Source of the DNA: Cognatundibacterium rivi
GTDB lineage: Bacteria; Pseudomonadota; Gammaproteobacteria; Burkholderiales; Burkholderiaceae_D
Length of the DNA stretch: 64,000 nucleotides
Direction of reading: 5' to 3'
Assembly (NCBI RefSeq): GCF_018139565.1
Contig: NZ_JAGSPK010000003.1
Location: 124,001 to 188,000 of the forward strand
Part shown: in pieces, positions 21,116 through 61,130 of the stretch
Layout: every line of letters starts with the position of its first letter
How positions within the stretch are numbered: position 1 is the first letter of the stretch
Notes under the pieces: generated by a model
The model's input: the letters and a program-made list of their open reading frames with translations, nothing else
Database searches by the model: none
What the model was told of the DNA's origin: nothing
Translations under genes and position numbers: made by a program

Positions 21116-24100
21116 CATTCACCTTTCTTGGCATCTTGCACGCGATGCTCACCTGCAACGTCCTGATTGTCCTGACGTTCAATTTTTTTCACCAGAGGAT
21201 CTTTCCACGGGCCACTCACCATATATTCGAAGGTGAAAGCCTTTGCCAGCGGTTCACGTAAGAACAATTGCGCCAGGAAAGTACCCAAGCCGATCACAGG
21301 ATTGACCGCCAGCCCATACACAACTGACGCTGCACCGGCATTGATAACAGGAATAACCACAACATGCAATTGCTGAGATTCATTCACGATATCAGCGTTG
21401 CCAGCCATCACCACCGTCGCATTCACTCCGCGCATTTTCAGATTATCGGTACGCGCCACACCCTGCAGAATTTGTGCGCTGCCGGTAATCGCATCAAAAG
21501 CGAATCCCTCAGAAAATATATCCCGGAAATCGAGGGTCAGACGTCGTGGCAACGACTGCATACTCAGCACACCCAGCAGCTTTGCGGCTCCCGGATCGAC
21601 CTTTAAAAACTGCCCGGCGGCCAGATCAAGCTGGACCTTGCCACTCATGCTGGGAATATCCATCGCATAAGGCAAACCATTCCATTTCACGTCACCGTCG
21701 AGACGTCCGCGTCCACCGCGTACGACATTCGCAAAACCCAGCCTGTCCAGCAATTGCCCGGCGTTCGCAATATCTAGCACGTAATTGAGTTGAGTCACGC
21801 TATTCCCAGTGCTATTCCCGGTGCTATTCCCGGTGCTATTCCCGGTACGATTGCCCCAGCGTCCGGTCGCCCTGAGTTCCGCATCCGGATTTTTCAGTAA
21901 CACCTTACTGAGCAGCCATTCATTCGAAGTACCACTCATCTGATTACTGGCTTGCAGCTCTAATCTGCCCAGTTTTTTGTTGAATAACTCAACATTATCC
22001 GCAACGATATCGAGCCCCGGGATCTGGGTACTGCTCCGCTTTTCATCGAACAAATCACCAGCATCGCTTGCCGCCGTTTGCGGGATAATCAGCTTGCTTA
22101 ACCGTGCCGTCACGGTGCCCGGCCCCGATCCCACTCCCGCGGCGCCAGCTTTTGCGCTGCCGTCATTCCAACTGATATGACCCGAAACCTGGCTGGCATC
22201 AATATTCGCCTGCCAGAGATCATTGTGATGAGAAACGCCCATCACGACATGATCCAGTTGCTTGCCCATGATATGCAACTGACCGGTTTTTAATGCCAGT
22301 GTGCTGACGTCCAGATACGGTGCAATATTTAAAGCGGTGATGCCCTGTACCACTTTGCCAGCAGCGCCGTTCGGCACAGAAGTCGCTGTATTGGTATTCG
22401 GCACTAACGTGCCGGTGGAACTTGCGCTCAAGACGCTGCGCCACTCATCAACATGCAGTACGTTCGCTTCAATATTGACCGCCACCCCGCGCAAAGGCTC
22501 AGGCGCAGGTAAATTCACACCGATACCGCCACGCAAGAGCTGCCAGTTGGCCTGCTTATCGGTGCTTTTCTGACGTACATATTTTGCATGCACCGCATTG
22601 CCAAGATGAATCCGCAACTCATCCTGCAAAACACCGCTGTCAGCTGTGTTCTGTGGCACCAGTTCGATGCGCAAGGGCATCACTTCTGTCGCATTTTTTT
22701 TCAGAGGTGCGGGAAAATTGAATGCCATTCCCTGTAAATTCGATTCAATCACGATTTCCGGTAATTGCTTTTTCACGGCGATCGTTGCGATGTAGCGGCT
22801 GGTACCATCTATCTTGATCTGCTCGCGATTCGCTGCTGGCAGCATCTGCCGCAAGCCCTCACCAGTGACGCTGCCATCAAGCCGGACGCGAATACTGTTA
22901 TCTTTTTGCGAGCCGCCGCTGATCACAATTGGCCCACCCAGCGCAGTTCCTTTCAGCGTCCCGAGATTAACACCGCGCTCGTTAAATTCGAGTTTGCCGT
23001 TGACGCCGGTGACCAGTGGAATGCCGGGTTGCAGCACCACGTCATTATTGGCAAACTGCAGCACGCCGTTGACTTTGGCATCAATCATGTGTCGCAACGG
23101 TAATTGCAGCTTTAATGTTAAACCGGCGTTCGCGCTGGCTTTCGATTCCGCCAGAAAATGCCCCAACCAGCCATCGACAGGACTGGCGCTGACATAAGCC
23201 AGCATGGTCTGCAGTTGCCCGCTGGCGTTGCCATCGATATTCAGAACCGATCCCGCACTTAATAAATCGGGAATCACCGCTTTCACCTTACGCAGATCAG
23301 CGCCCAGGGTTTTCGCCGTATCGCCGTTAATTTCCATTCTGGCGCGCTCAAAGATGAAATTCCCTTTGATGTCGTCGATGACTGGCCATAAAGGTGCTTT
23401 GCCACCTTCCGCCAACTCACCTGCAGTGAAATCCAGTTTGCCGCCGCTCAGATTACCTCTGACCAGAAATTCACCTTTGTTTCTGGAATGAGGTTCACTG
23501 GCTGAAAATGGGAAATGCGCGAGGTCGCCGCGAATGCGCACGGTAACATCGTCAGCGCGCCCATCAAGGATACTTTTCGTCAGCCAATGACGTAAATCCG
23601 GCTCGGCGACCGTAGGAATATAGCGATCCAGCTGTTTCAGATCGAAACCATCAAGATGCGCGGTTAAATCGACGTCACCGGGCTGCGGCTGTGCCGATGC
23701 ACGCATAGACATAATGTGTTTACCAGATAAAGTGGCGTGCATACTCTCCTGCACCATATCCATCTTATTGATCTGAAACATCAGCTTGTCGTCGGCTTGA
23801 AATTTCCAGTTTGCCTGCATTTGCAAACGGTTAAACGGCATGACCGGATCAATGAAATAGCTGGCAAGGCGCAAGGACAAGTCTTTTGAATCCAGCAAAA
23901 ATGCCCCGCCTCGGTCACTGGCATCAACGGTACCGGATAAATTTTCAAAGCCAGGAATCGCCGGAACCGCTGCTTTCGCCGGTGTTTTTGTAGTTTTGGC
24001 ACGAGCTAACTGGGCTGGCTGTGGCTGCATGGACAAATTGATAAATTCGCCCTTCACTTTGTAGGCCGCGACATCCGGATAAGTCCCTTGCCACGACGCG

Positions 24101-58014: not shown

Positions 58015-58620
58015 TTACTTTCTGGCGCTGTGAACAACGTCAACAAATTTGACGGCCTGTTGTTCCATATCGACCACGAGACTATCGACCAGGGCTCGGA
58101 AATGGCGATAAGCGACCAGCGCCGGCATCGCGATCAGCAGACCAAAACCCGTGTTGTACAAGGCCACCGAAATACCATGCGCCAATTGCGCCGGATTCGC
58201 GCCGGTCGCCGTTTGCGAACCGAAAATTTCTATCATCCCAACCACCGTACCGAACAAGCCCATCAGCGGCGCCAATGAAGCTATCGTGCCCAGTGTCGTC
58301 AGGAAACGTTCGAGCTCATGTGCGACCGCAGCACCAGCTTCTTCGATGGACTCTTTCATCACTTCGCGTGGCGCGCTGACGTTGCGCAAACCCGCAGCCA
58401 GCACTTTACCCAAAGGGGAATTGCCTGCAAGTTGTTGTATCACTTCCGGCTTTACCTTACCTGACTGATACACCCGTATCACTTCATCAAGCAGCGTCGC
58501 TGGCAGAATTTTATTGCGGCGCAAGGAAAAACTGCGCTCAATAATCAGCGTTAAGGCGATCACAGAAGAAATCAACAACAGATAAATAGGCCAGCCGGCG
58601 GCTTGAATAATGGCGAACAA
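58015..58620 (-). CDS. exbB: ExbB/TolQ-type proton channel protein
   Basis: 201 residues from a TTG at 58620, with AGGAG seven bases away. Three membrane helices; the MotA/TolQ/ExbB core has PLMGLFGTVVGMIEIF and NPAQLAHGISVALYNTGFGLLIAMPAL, the proton-channel helices. It pairs with the downstream exbD. The 1.1-kb repeat-filled gap lies directly upstream. Confidence 0.93.
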   Translation of the reverse strand: MFAIIQAAGWPIYLLLISSVIALTLIIERSFSLRRNKILPATLLDEVIRVYQSGKVKPEVIQQLAGNSPLGKVLAAGLRNVSAPREVMKESIEEAGAAVAHELERFLTTLGTIASLAPLMGLFGTVVGMIEIFGSQTATGANPAQLAHGISVALYNTGFGLLIAMPALVAYRHFRALVDSLVVDMEQQAVKFVDVVHSARK

Positions 58621-58720
58621 AGCGCACTCCTAGTAGGTTCAGAAATCCAACCCCGCAATGTAGCGCTTTGTGTGCTGACGGGCAAGGGTACTGATGAAAA
58701 AAACGACGTCTGTGCATATC

Positions 58721-59765
58721 TCTCATGTTTTACACAAAATCTGTGCGCAAGCTTGTGGATAAGTATGGCATAGCACCGTAAGCCTTTGAAATAAAAAAGA
58801 TTTCCGATAACGCTCAAGAATTAGGCAACGTTGATCGGGGTAGATACCGGGTTTTTCCGGCCATATTTTTTCCTATTTCTGCACACTTTATGTGGACAAG
58901 CTTGTGCACAAGCGCTGCGAAACAAGTTAAGTCCCTGATTTATAAATAGATTAATCTTCTGCAAATTATTTAGGCAAAGTGCTTTTTTTCAGTCATTTTG
59001 CTCAAAATAACAGCAAGGCTGCGCATGCAGTGGACAACTCCATTGTTTTGCACAAATTATGTGGACAAATTTGTGCAGAATGCCGAAAAAGATCTGCAAT
59101 TAATTGATTTATATAGATAAATATAATCAGCTTAAAAATTGGGCAAATCCGGTTTTGAGGCGATTCAATACCTTTTTATCATCATGAAACCGATAGCATT
59201 CAGCCGCTGTCGGGGATAACTCTGACTTTTTGCACATTTTTTGTGGACAACATTGTGAAAAAGACTGGGGAATCACATTAAGTCCATGATTTATATCAAC
59301 TATTTTATAAAGCCTGTTTTTTAAGCACGGACTAAAAAGATGAGATCACAAAGAAATAATTACTTACAAAGCAAGTTTTTCTGTGAACAAGTCCATTTTT
59401 CTCACATTTTTTGTGGACAAGACTGTGCAAAAGGAAAAGAAAACGCACTAACTCCATGATTTTATTCAGAAATACTGTTCTGCATAAAATATAAGCAAAA
59501 CCTGGTTTCCGTCACTGCGCTGAAGATACCCACAGTTTATGCACTTATTCTGTGGATAAGTTTGTGCACAAGCCTTGTATCGTTCTGTAACTCCTTTGAT
59601 TTGTAAGGATTTTTTCATATTGCCTGATTTACTTGCAGAGAGATAGATAATAAAAATCAAGGACTTATATTCGGAATTTGCATTTCTTTTGACTTATGAC
59701 TGTCGTAATGACATGCTGGAGACCGCCACAAGCTTCTGTGGACAGCTTTTTTGATTGTATGCCAC
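58721..59765. repeat. Degenerate tandem array of TGTGGACAA/TGTGGATAA units
   Basis: A 1.1-kb AT-rich gap without a gene, divergent promoters at both ends. Core boxes TGTGGAYAA start at 58891, 59060, 59242, 59412 and 59551 (spacing 169, 182, 170, 139), with outliers at 58754 (a perfect DnaA box in reverse, TGTGGATAA) and 59737 (TGTGGACAG). Most core boxes sit in a dyad GCACA...TGTGC; at 59050-59076 it is perfect (GCACAAATT / AATTTGTGC). A second box like GTGGACAAC lies 30 bases before three of the cores. The block (A)CTCCATGATTTATA follows at +39 or +40, and GGCAAA..TGGTTTT at about +70 to +82. The common phase shows that whole units were duplicated. Confidence 0.82.
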
Positions 59766-61130
59766 ATGAACACTGAATCCCGCCCTTCAAACTCAATTGC
59801 GACAAGCGCTGTCATCAGTGTTTCGGCGCTCAACAGCGCCGTAGCTCAATTATTGGAACGCAATATCCCGCTGACCTGGGTTTCCGGCGAAATATCGAAT
59901 TTCACCCGCGCCAGCTCTGGACATTGGTATTTCACTCTCAAAGACAGCGCGGCTCAGGTACGTGCAGTCATGTTTCGTGGCCGCGCCCAGTATGCGGATT
60001 TCCAACCGCGCGAGGGCGATAAAGTCGAGGTGCGGGCACTGGTGACGCTGTATGCGCCGCGCGGTGATTATCAGCTCAGCGTCGAAGCGATACGTCGTGC
60101 CGGGGTCGGCAACCTGTATGAAGCTTTTTTACGTCTGAAGGCGCAACTGACTCAGGAGGGCTTATTTGATCCTGAGCGCAAACGCGCGCTACCCGTTTTT
60201 CCAAAAACCATAGGCATCGTCACCAGCCCGCAGGCAGCCGCATTGCGCGATGTGCTGACGACGCTGCGGCGCCGGGTGCCGCAGATTCAGGTCATCTTGT
60301 ATCCGACGCCGGTACAAGGCGAAGGCGCCGGTGCCAAAATTGCCCAGGCAATCGCCACTGCTGCCGCACGCGAAGAATGCGATGTGCTGCTGGTCTGCCG
60401 CGGTGGTGGCAGCATAGAAGATTTGTGGGCATTCAATGAAGAAATCATCGCCCGCACCATCGCCAACTGCCCCATGCCAGTGATTGCCGGCATCGGCCAT
60501 GAAACCGACTTTACGATTGCCGACTTCGCCGCCGATATCCGCGCTGCAACGCCAACGGCCGCCGCAGAACTTGCCGCCACACCGCGTGCCGACTGGATCG
60601 CCGGGCTAGAACAGCAACAACACCGTATGCAAAGAGCAATGCGCCGACAAATAGCGACCCAGAATCAGACGCTGGACTGGCTGTCCCGTCGTCTGCTGAG
60701 TCCGGCGGCAGCGATCAATTTAAAACGACAGCAATTGCAGCATTGTCTGCAAACGCTGCGTTACAGCAGCGGCATTCCCTTGCAACGTTCACGCCATGCA
60801 CTGGCGCAGCTGGATATGCGGCTGAAAAGCCAGCGCCCTGATGTGCATTCGGCACGTACACAATTAAACGAACTCCGACATCGGCTGCAGCAATGCCAAC
60901 GCCACGCGCTTTCGCAGCAACGCCAACAACTCAGCGCGCTGCAGACACAGCTGGAATTACTGAATCCGCAACGCACGCTGGATCGTGGTTACGCGATTAT
61001 CCGCGACCACAAAGGCAAACTCCTGCGTTCAACTCAAGAGTTACACCCGCAAAGCCTGATCAACATCCATCTGGCAAACGGCAGTGCTGAAGTGGGCATC
61101 AGCAGCGTCCAGACCAGTCTGGATCAGTGA
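59766..61130 (+). CDS. xseA: Exodeoxyribonuclease VII large subunit
   Basis: 454 residues from the ATG at 59766. An N-terminal OB-fold ([28 protein letters not shown]) and the catalytic domain with [34 protein letters not shown], and [32 protein letters not shown] are full. A long Gln/Arg-rich coiled coil and a C-terminal [15 protein letters not shown] complete it. With XseB it degrades single-stranded DNA. The last unit of the upstream repeat array ends next to its start. Confidence 0.95.

What the first reader, a model, noticed from the sequence alone, without database searches (positions are those of the whole stretch)
58721..59765. Tandem array of DnaA-box-like dyads in a 1.1-kb gap between exbB and xseA
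Seen: at least five phased degenerate units of 140-182 bp. Each has a TGTGGACAA or TGTGGATAA core, most in a GCACA...TGTGC dyad, a CTCCATGATTTATA block at +39/+40 and a GGCAAA..TGGTTTT block at +70 to +82. Two cores are perfect DnaA boxes in reverse (TGTGGATAA at 58754 and 59551); the others have one change. Known: TTWTNCACA boxes bind DnaA, and clusters outside oriC can titrate (datA) or reactivate (DARS) DnaA. Inference: a DnaA-binding or iteron-type locus controlling replication or segregation in this group. No dnaA, rpmH or rep gene is near.
Basis: partly seen in the sequence, partly recalled or inferred. Interest (0 to 1): 0.82.

Follow-up and report, generated by a model that had tools for sequence, protein, structure and literature searches.

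The report
Tandem array of DnaA-recharging-like sites
Between two ordinary genes this bacterium carries six copies, in a row, of a DNA module built like the E. coli sites that recharge the replication-starting protein DnaA, and most relatives examined carry one to eight copies at the same place, so it probably helps set when the chromosome is copied.

Summary
The array is real. The exbB-xseA gap (58621-59750) holds six units, each a three-box DnaA core: box I >, 5 bp, < box II, 3 bp, < box III. That is the layout of E. coli DARS1 and DARS2; the same scan found none in datA. Each unit has an IHF-like site 16/17 bp after box III and a Fis-like dyad 32 bp after the IHF start. Of 80 named exbB loci, 68 have at least one core and 54 at least two. 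IHF matches with at most 1 mismatch occur in 149 of 246 units, all at offset 16 or 17. An unbiased box-pair count peaks at the same 5- and 3-bp gaps. Unit spacing is helically phased at 10.55 bp. The genome encodes IHF-alpha and a Fis homologue.

Best reading: a tandem DARS2-like array that binds DnaA with IHF and Fis and recharges ADP-DnaA. DnaA binding is very likely; recharging is inferred; titration is the main rival. Tandem copies, compact IHF spacing, phasing and location differ from E. coli DARS2: a new variant of a known kind. No biochemistry was possible.

The parts
58728..58762 (+). Unit 1 DARS-type core: box I 58728-58736 (TTTTACACA), degenerate box II 58742-58750 (2 mismatches), box III 58754-58762 (perfect)
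58779..58791 (+). Unit 1 IHF-like site TAAGCCTTTGAAA (1 mismatch), 16 bp after box III
58811..58827 (.). Unit 1 Fis-like dyad (GCTCAAGAATTAGGC fits the Fis consensus without mismatch)
58877..58911 (+). Unit 2 core: box I 58877-58885, box II 58891-58899, box III 58903-58911
58928..58940 (+). Unit 2 IHF-like site TAAGTCCCTGATT (1 mismatch)
58960..58976 (.). Unit 2 Fis-like dyad TGC-N11-GCA (Fis consensus, 1 mismatch)
59046..59080 (+). Unit 3 core: TTTTGCACA > 5 bp < TGTGGACAA 3 bp < TGTGCAGAA
59097..59109 (+). Unit 3 IHF-like site CAATTAATTGATT (1 mismatch)
59129..59145 (.). Unit 3 Fis-like dyad (GCTTAAAAATTGGGC, no mismatch)
59228..59262 (+). Unit 4 core
59279..59291 (+). Unit 4 IHF-like site TAAGTCCATGATT (1 mismatch)
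59311..59327 (.). Unit 4 Fis-like dyad (GCCTGTTTTTTAAGC, 1 mismatch)
59398..59432 (+). Unit 5 core
59449..59461 (+). Unit 5 IHF-like site TAACTCCATGATT (1 mismatch)
59481..59497 (.). Unit 5 Fis-like dyad (GCATAAAATATAAGC, no mismatch)
59537..59571 (+). Unit 6 core: TTATGCACT > 5 bp < TGTGGATAA (perfect box II) 3 bp < TGTGCACAA
59589..59601 (+). Unit 6 IHF-like site AACTCCTTTGATT, offset 17 (2 mismatches)
59621..59637 (.). Unit 6 dyad TGC-N11-GCA at offset 49 (no Fis consensus match with 1 mismatch or fewer)
58015..58620 (-). exbB (MotA_ExbB), flanking gene, transcribed away from the array; exbD and lpxK follow
59751..61130 (+). xseA (exonuclease VII large subunit), flanking gene, transcribed away from the array; its start may be the later ATG at 59766

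Best explanation
The gap is a tandem array of six DARS2-like modules. In each, box I faces boxes II and III, so two DnaA molecules meet head to head. IHF binds 16-17 bp after box III and bends the DNA, and a Fis-type protein probably binds about 20 bp beyond the IHF site. By analogy with E. coli DARS, this assembly would release ADP from DnaA so that it picks up ATP, raising ATP-DnaA and promoting initiation at oriC. The near whole-turn spacing of units suggests that several act on one face of the DNA in one large complex. Shown by sequence: architecture, positions, conservation, phasing, and that the genome encodes DnaA, IHF-alpha and a Fis homologue. Inferred: binding, bending, recharging and the effect on initiation.
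For: (1) The 9-5-9-3-9 layout with box I inverted is the same in E. coli DARS1, DARS2 and five window units with the strict scan, six with the relaxed one. Papers say box I opposes II and III, spacing is the same in DARS1 and DARS2, and head-to-head contact of DnaA on I and II drives ADP release (passages read). (2) Unbiased count over 81 gaps: opposed pairs 5 bp apart 227, like pairs 3 bp apart 88, opposed pairs 17 bp apart (=5+9+3) 64; next highest 14; three Markov resamplings gave 0 at the 5- and 3-bp peaks. (3) IHF consensus TAAnnnnTTGATW with at most 1 mismatch in 149 of 246 units, all at offset 16 or 17; 200 shuffles mean 6.9, maximum 13; opposite orientation 7. Orientation as in the IBS1-like match of DARS2. 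(4) Dyad TGC-N11-GCA at one fixed offset in 141 of 233 units; exact Fis consensus 31 times at +33, while shuffles gave a mean of 7.7 units with an exact match anywhere. The order core-IHF-Fis is that of DARS2. (5) Helical phasing: R=0.56 over 83 non-redundant spacings, 0 of 2000 nulls. (6) DARS-core pattern (up to 3 mismatches) in 114 of 115 family genomes, control 0. IHF-alpha and a Fis homologue in 4 of 4 genomes searched. (7) Arrays lie 0.42-0.63 of a chromosome arm from dnaA in the seven genomes computed.
Against: No biochemistry. The IHF site is 16-17 bp from box III, not 58 as for the IBS1-like match in E. coli DARS2, where moving IBS1-2 by 5 or 10 bp toward the core lowered activity. 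Box II is TTGTCCACA in four of six units, one change from TTWTNCACA, and unit 1 has two changes. The window's IHF sites each have 1-2 mismatches. The Fis evidence rests on position: with 1 mismatch allowed at any offset, 143 of 233 units match against a shuffle mean of 96, maximum 113. Of 80 loci 12 have no core, among them four of six labelled Herbaspirillum. In G014 GC skew puts the origin 262 kb from dnaA and the array 0.69 of an arm away, so the position match to DARS2 is loose. The location is not the E. coli DARS2 locus.
Confidence: 0.62

Rival explanations
1. A DnaA titration sink: up to 18 boxes in 1.1 kb hold DnaA and delay initiation without changing its nucleotide.
For: High local box density: 7 TTWTNCACA in 1147 bp against 6 in the other 62.9 kb. 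Copy number varies from 0 to 7 between the 80 loci, as expected if only total capacity matters. A 2025 E. coli paper has a section headed that DARS1, DARS2 and datA account for a large fraction of chromosomal titration power (heading seen; of that paper I read section 6).
Against: A plain sink needs no inverted box I, no fixed 5- and 3-bp gaps, no IHF at a fixed 16/17 bp and no helical phasing. Titration could also be a side effect of a DARS array.
Confidence: 0.2
2. A datA-like site: DnaA and IHF promote ATP hydrolysis (DDAH), lowering ATP-DnaA.
For: IHF-like sites lie between like-oriented boxes II/III of neighbouring units (sequence).
Against: Essential datA boxes all point one way (passage read). 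The E. coli datA stretch has no 9-5-9-3-9 core, and its IHF consensus has the orientation of its perfect boxes. Here the IHF-like site is opposite to boxes II and III and in the direction of box I, as in DARS2.
Confidence: 0.08
3. A DnaA-controlled divergent promoter for exbB-exbD-lpxK and xseA.
For: The array fills the gap between two divergent genes.
Against: In L118 a 173-aa gene lies inside the array and in L140 an open frame of 325 codons separates units, yet modules persist on both sides. Up to eight fixed modules (L117, L120) seem more than promoter control needs. A module of the same kind stands in the priA-hemE gap of two other families.
Confidence: 0.07
4. An origin of replication or plasmid-type iteron origin.
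For: DnaA boxes plus AT-rich DNA.
Against: GC skew keeps one sign over the window except the first 4-kb bin, with no switch at this end. In G014 the skew minimum and a four-box cluster are near 2.68-2.69 Mb while the array is near 4.13 Mb. I saw no rep gene among the nearby frames looked at.
Confidence: 0.02

Closest known systems
E. coli DARS2 (rppH-mutH gap)
   Same: Core 9-5-9-3-9 with inverted box I; order core, IHF, Fis; IHF site in the orientation of the IBS1-like match; intergenic, between origin and terminus.
   Different: Six tandem copies instead of one; IHF 16/17 bp instead of 58 bp after box III; helical phasing between units; exbB-xseA location. The distance to FBS2-3 was not compared, since I did not locate those sites in the E. 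coli sequence.
E. coli DARS1 (bioD-uvrB gap)
   Same: Identical core layout.
   Different: One core only, and no IHF consensus match with at most one mismatch in its gap.
E. coli datA
   Same: DnaA boxes plus IHF outside oriC.
   Different: Essential boxes in one direction, no DARS core, IHF consensus in the orientation of the perfect boxes.
DnaA-box clusters outside oriC that titrate DnaA, such as those of Bacillus and Streptomyces (recalled, from no call)
   Same: Several DnaA boxes away from oriC.
   Different: I know of no fixed inverted-box core with IHF there; not compared by sequence.

Membership tests
DARS (DnaA-reactivating sequence) | Three DnaA boxes, box I opposed to II and III, with the spacing shared by DARS1 and DARS2 | tested here: met
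   five units, strict; six units; unbiased spacing peaks at 5 and 3 bp
DARS (DnaA-reactivating sequence) | Stimulates ADP release from DnaA | not testable with these tools
   needs purified proteins
DARS (DnaA-reactivating sequence) | Prefers ADP-DnaA over ATP-DnaA | not testable with these tools
   needs binding assays
DARS2 | IHF site after the core | tested here: met
   by sequence only, at 16/17 bp
DARS2 | Core-to-IHF distance as in E. coli (58 bp) | tested here: not met
   a 58-bp pattern hit 2 of 276 genomes of the class sample, own not among them
DARS2 | Fis site beyond the IHF site | tested here: inconclusive
   dyad in six of six window units, Fis consensus with at most 1 mismatch there in five of six; fixed position in relatives but modest total enrichment
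DARS2 | Genomic position as in E. coli (mutH locus) | tested here: not met
   flanks are exbB and xseA; E. coli flanks
datA | Essential boxes in one direction around one IHF site | tested here: not met
oriC | GC-skew switch at the site | tested here: not met
DnaA titration cluster | Local excess of DnaA boxes | tested here: met
DnaA titration cluster | Removing it raises free DnaA without nucleotide exchange | not testable with these tools
   needs experiments

The most novel reading that the evidence does not exclude
The array is a repeated DnaA-reactivation machine: IHF-bent modules set near whole helical turns stack their head-to-head DnaA pairs into one superhelical complex, and the evolvable number of modules (one to eight seen) tunes how fast ADP-DnaA is recharged and so the cell size at initiation. 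Single-module forms at exbB-xseA and priA-hemE in other Burkholderiales would be the ancestral state.
Probability: 0.35. Interest if true: 0.88.

Novelty: new variant of a known kind. Interest (0 to 1): 0.8.

Why it matters
DARS is worked out in E. coli. One paper calls the DARS2 core specific to gamma-proteobacteria related to E. coli (passage), though a review says beta or gamma relatives (passage). The same core geometry, with fixed IHF and Fis-like sites and tandem copies, across a betaproteobacterial family would show that DnaA reactivation sites are older and more plastic than E. coli suggests. It also offers a natural series of copy numbers for testing whether reactivation or titration sets initiation timing.

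Tried and rejected
Second origin: no skew switch in the window and a separate skew minimum in G014. Dispersed repeat family: in the own genome the pattern is nearly confined to this locus. datA: geometry differs. Pure promoter role: reading frames lie inside the arrays of L118 and L140. I assumed at first that oriC lies at dnaA. G014 speaks against that for one genome, coarse skew in G062 fits it, and the own genome has one TTDTNCACA box and no core in the 16 kb around dnaA, so its own oriC is not located. The contig G015:C2 had two short matches but no core in L124. Literature: the listings show no title on DARS-like arrays in Oxalobacteraceae or on the exbB-xseA gap. One search was swamped by unrelated papers, the two papers (DARS1, DARS2, Burkholderia) were not opened, and most subscription journals are not held, so absence from print is not shown. 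Two primary DARS papers whose DOIs I recalled (2009, 2019) were not held.

Full report
WHAT IS THERE. The window lies in an Undibacterium-like genome of the Oxalobacteraceae: its ExbB is 95% identical to that of U. oligocarboniphilum (family). Between exbB (-, 58015-58620) and xseA (+, from 59751) lies a gap of about 1.1 kb with six repeated units spaced 149, 169, 182, 170 and 139 bp.

UNIT ANATOMY. Each unit has box I (forward, TTWTNCACA type), 5 bp, box II (reverse), 3 bp, box III (reverse). Five units pass a scan allowing 2, 1 and 2 mismatches; the sixth, at 58728, has two mismatches in box II and is found when three are allowed in total. The strict scan found no other core in the window, and 1000 Markov resamplings of the gap gave none. 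An IHF-like site starts 16 bp after box III in five units (1 mismatch each) and 17 bp in the last (2 mismatches). A 17-bp dyad follows 32 bp after the IHF start in six of six (arms relaxed to GC..GC in three); in five the Fis consensus fits there with at most 1 mismatch.

COMPARISON WITH E. COLI. I fetched the E. coli K-12 stretches around rppH-mutH, bioD-uvrB and datA. The same scan found one core in the DARS2 stretch (mismatches 1,1,1), one in the DARS1 stretch (1,0,1) and none in the datA stretch. So the geometry of the window units is that of both DARS sites. In DARS2 two IHF matches with 1 mismatch lie 3 bp apart, as the paper says of IBS1 and IBS2; taking the first as IBS1, it starts 58 bp after box III in the same orientation as here. 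The difference of 41-42 bp is about four helical turns (inference). Papers state that box I opposes II and III with the same spacing at DARS1 and DARS2, that head-to-head contact releases ADP, and that DARS2 needs IHF and Fis (passages read: PMC5742627, PMC8682772, PMC4245941, PMC4585315).

CONSERVATION. A genome-contig scan with ExbB kept the best 80 loci of 544, from a capped pattern list. By tblastn 76 of 80 have xseA divergent to exbB; L032, L044, L082 and L099 gave no xseA hit. In up to 2 kb upstream of exbB (160 kb in all) I found 249 cores (at most 4 mismatches in total, 1 in box II), against 10 in the other 804 kb. Those 10 are in L054, L065 and L071, whose exbB-xseA gaps exceed 2 kb. 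Of 80 loci 68 have a core, and 246 of 249 cores are on the same strand. On that strand 54 loci have two or more, 14 one and 12 none. Tandem arrays occur in Undibacterium, Massilia, Duganella, Pseudoduganella, Rugamonas, Janthinobacterium and Collimonas. Single units occur in both Herminiimonas loci, Keguizhuia and one of three Noviherbaspirillum. Five of six Rhodocyclales loci (order recalled) have one core, none with the IHF site at 16/17. Of six loci labelled Herbaspirillum four have none, one has one and one has seven; one of six labelled Janthinobacterium has none. All 24 other genomes of the genus did, several of them weakly, and matches outside this locus are included.

TESTS NOT TIED TO MY MODEL. 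Counting all box pairs (at most 1 mismatch per box) in 81 gaps of up to 1.5 kb, opposed pairs 5 bp apart (227), like pairs 3 bp apart (88) and opposed pairs 17 bp apart (64) stand out; the next is 14, and three Markov resamplings gave 0 at the two main peaks. The best IHF match within 80 bp has at most 1 mismatch in 149 of 246 units: 42 at offset 16, 107 at 17, none elsewhere; 200 shuffles gave 6.9 on average. With 2 mismatches allowed, 234 of 246 have it at 16 or 17. For the Fis-like dyad 13 of 246 units were left out (no such IHF site, or too little sequence). Of 233, 141 have TGC-N11-GCA at one offset, and 112 a Fis match with at most 1 mismatch at +33. Against this, such matches at any offset are in 143 of 233 units and in a mean of 96 (maximum 113) after shuffling, so it is the fixed position that is strong.

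PHASING. Of consecutive core spacings, 155 between 60 and 300 bp were taken; 83 remained after removing near-identical pairs. They cluster at a period of 10.55 bp (R=0.56; all 155: R=0.47). None of 2000 jittered sets reached it (maximum 0.40; their periods were scanned on a coarser grid). The window's own spacings leave 0.06, 0.94, 0.17, 0.04 and 0.11 of a turn at 10.6 bp.

GENOME-WIDE AND TAXONOMIC SPREAD. The core pattern (up to 3 mismatches) is in 114 of 115 family genomes, control 0; those hits include sites outside exbB-xseA, and the match list was cut. Core plus IHF at 17 (up to 3 mismatches) is in 25 of 250 genomes of the order, control 0; the three with more than one match are all of the window's family, and many single hits elsewhere have a poor IHF part. 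This test misses the 16-bp form common in Undibacterium. L148, from another family, has one module between exbB and xseA, its IHF part with 2 mismatches. In a class-wide sample the 17-bp form (up to 2 mismatches) is in 8 of 276 genomes, own included, never twice. Three of the seven others (G404, G442, G582) carry an exact IHF consensus, so the single module may reach beyond the order. The 58-bp form hit 2 of 276, but the printed matches were cut before the IHF part.

POSITION. Distance from dnaA in the seven genomes computed: G005 0.42, G014 0.57, G016 0.56, G015 0.57, G062 0.55, G132 0.60 and G054 0.63 of an arm. Flanking exbB and xseA were confirmed in six of these, not in G132. E. coli DARS2 gives 0.41 with a recalled oriC position. 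In G014 skew and a box cluster place the origin near 2.686 Mb, 262 kb from dnaA, giving 0.69; in G062 coarse skew fits an origin near dnaA. Mid-arm position is therefore approximate.

MECHANISM. Shown by sequence: architecture, conservation, phasing, and genes for DnaA, IHF-alpha and a Fis homologue (41% identity). Inferred: DnaA, IHF and Fis bind; the opposed DnaA pair releases ADP; recharged DnaA promotes initiation. I hold DnaA binding at about 0.95, a DARS-like reactivating role at 0.62, and titration as the main role at 0.2. Spacers vary while core, IHF and dyad positions stay constant, which indicates selection. In L117 five units lie 245-246 bp apart and look recently duplicated, which suggests growth by unequal exchange (inference).

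NOVELTY. A known kind (DARS) in a new variant: tandem, compact, helically phased, at a new locus in another group. Whether it has been described elsewhere is not settled, because the paper library lacks most subscription journals.

Noticed in passing
L115 position 6721 (G000:C5 near 126720), priA-hemE gap; also L123, L138, L142, L146, L147: A second conserved DARS-type core lies between hemE and priA (family match in L115; by eye in the others). In the own genome it lacks IHF at 16/17 bp, but in two other families (L146, L147) it has an IHF-like site at 17.
   Followed up: partly
G014 contig 1, 2685886-2686630: GC-skew minimum with a four-box DnaA cluster about 262 kb from dnaA: a likely oriC apart from dnaA in this relative.
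   Followed up: partly
L139 position 2977 (G062:C1 near 1644976): A second module (core plus IHF at 17 bp) about 216 kb from the exbB-xseA array of the same genome.
   Followed up: no
L117 3735-4752 and L118 3826-4347: L117 has five near-identical units 245-246 bp apart; L118 has a 173-aa gene (Pfam 3-dmu-9_3-mt) between units of the array.
   Followed up: partly
G015:C2 137626-137663 and 143500-143537 (L124): Short matches to the array on a 171-kb second contig, perhaps a plasmid; no core found.
   Followed up: partly
window 21799-21846: Four copies of a 12-bp tandem repeat (GCTATTCCCGGT, 97% matches).
   Followed up: no
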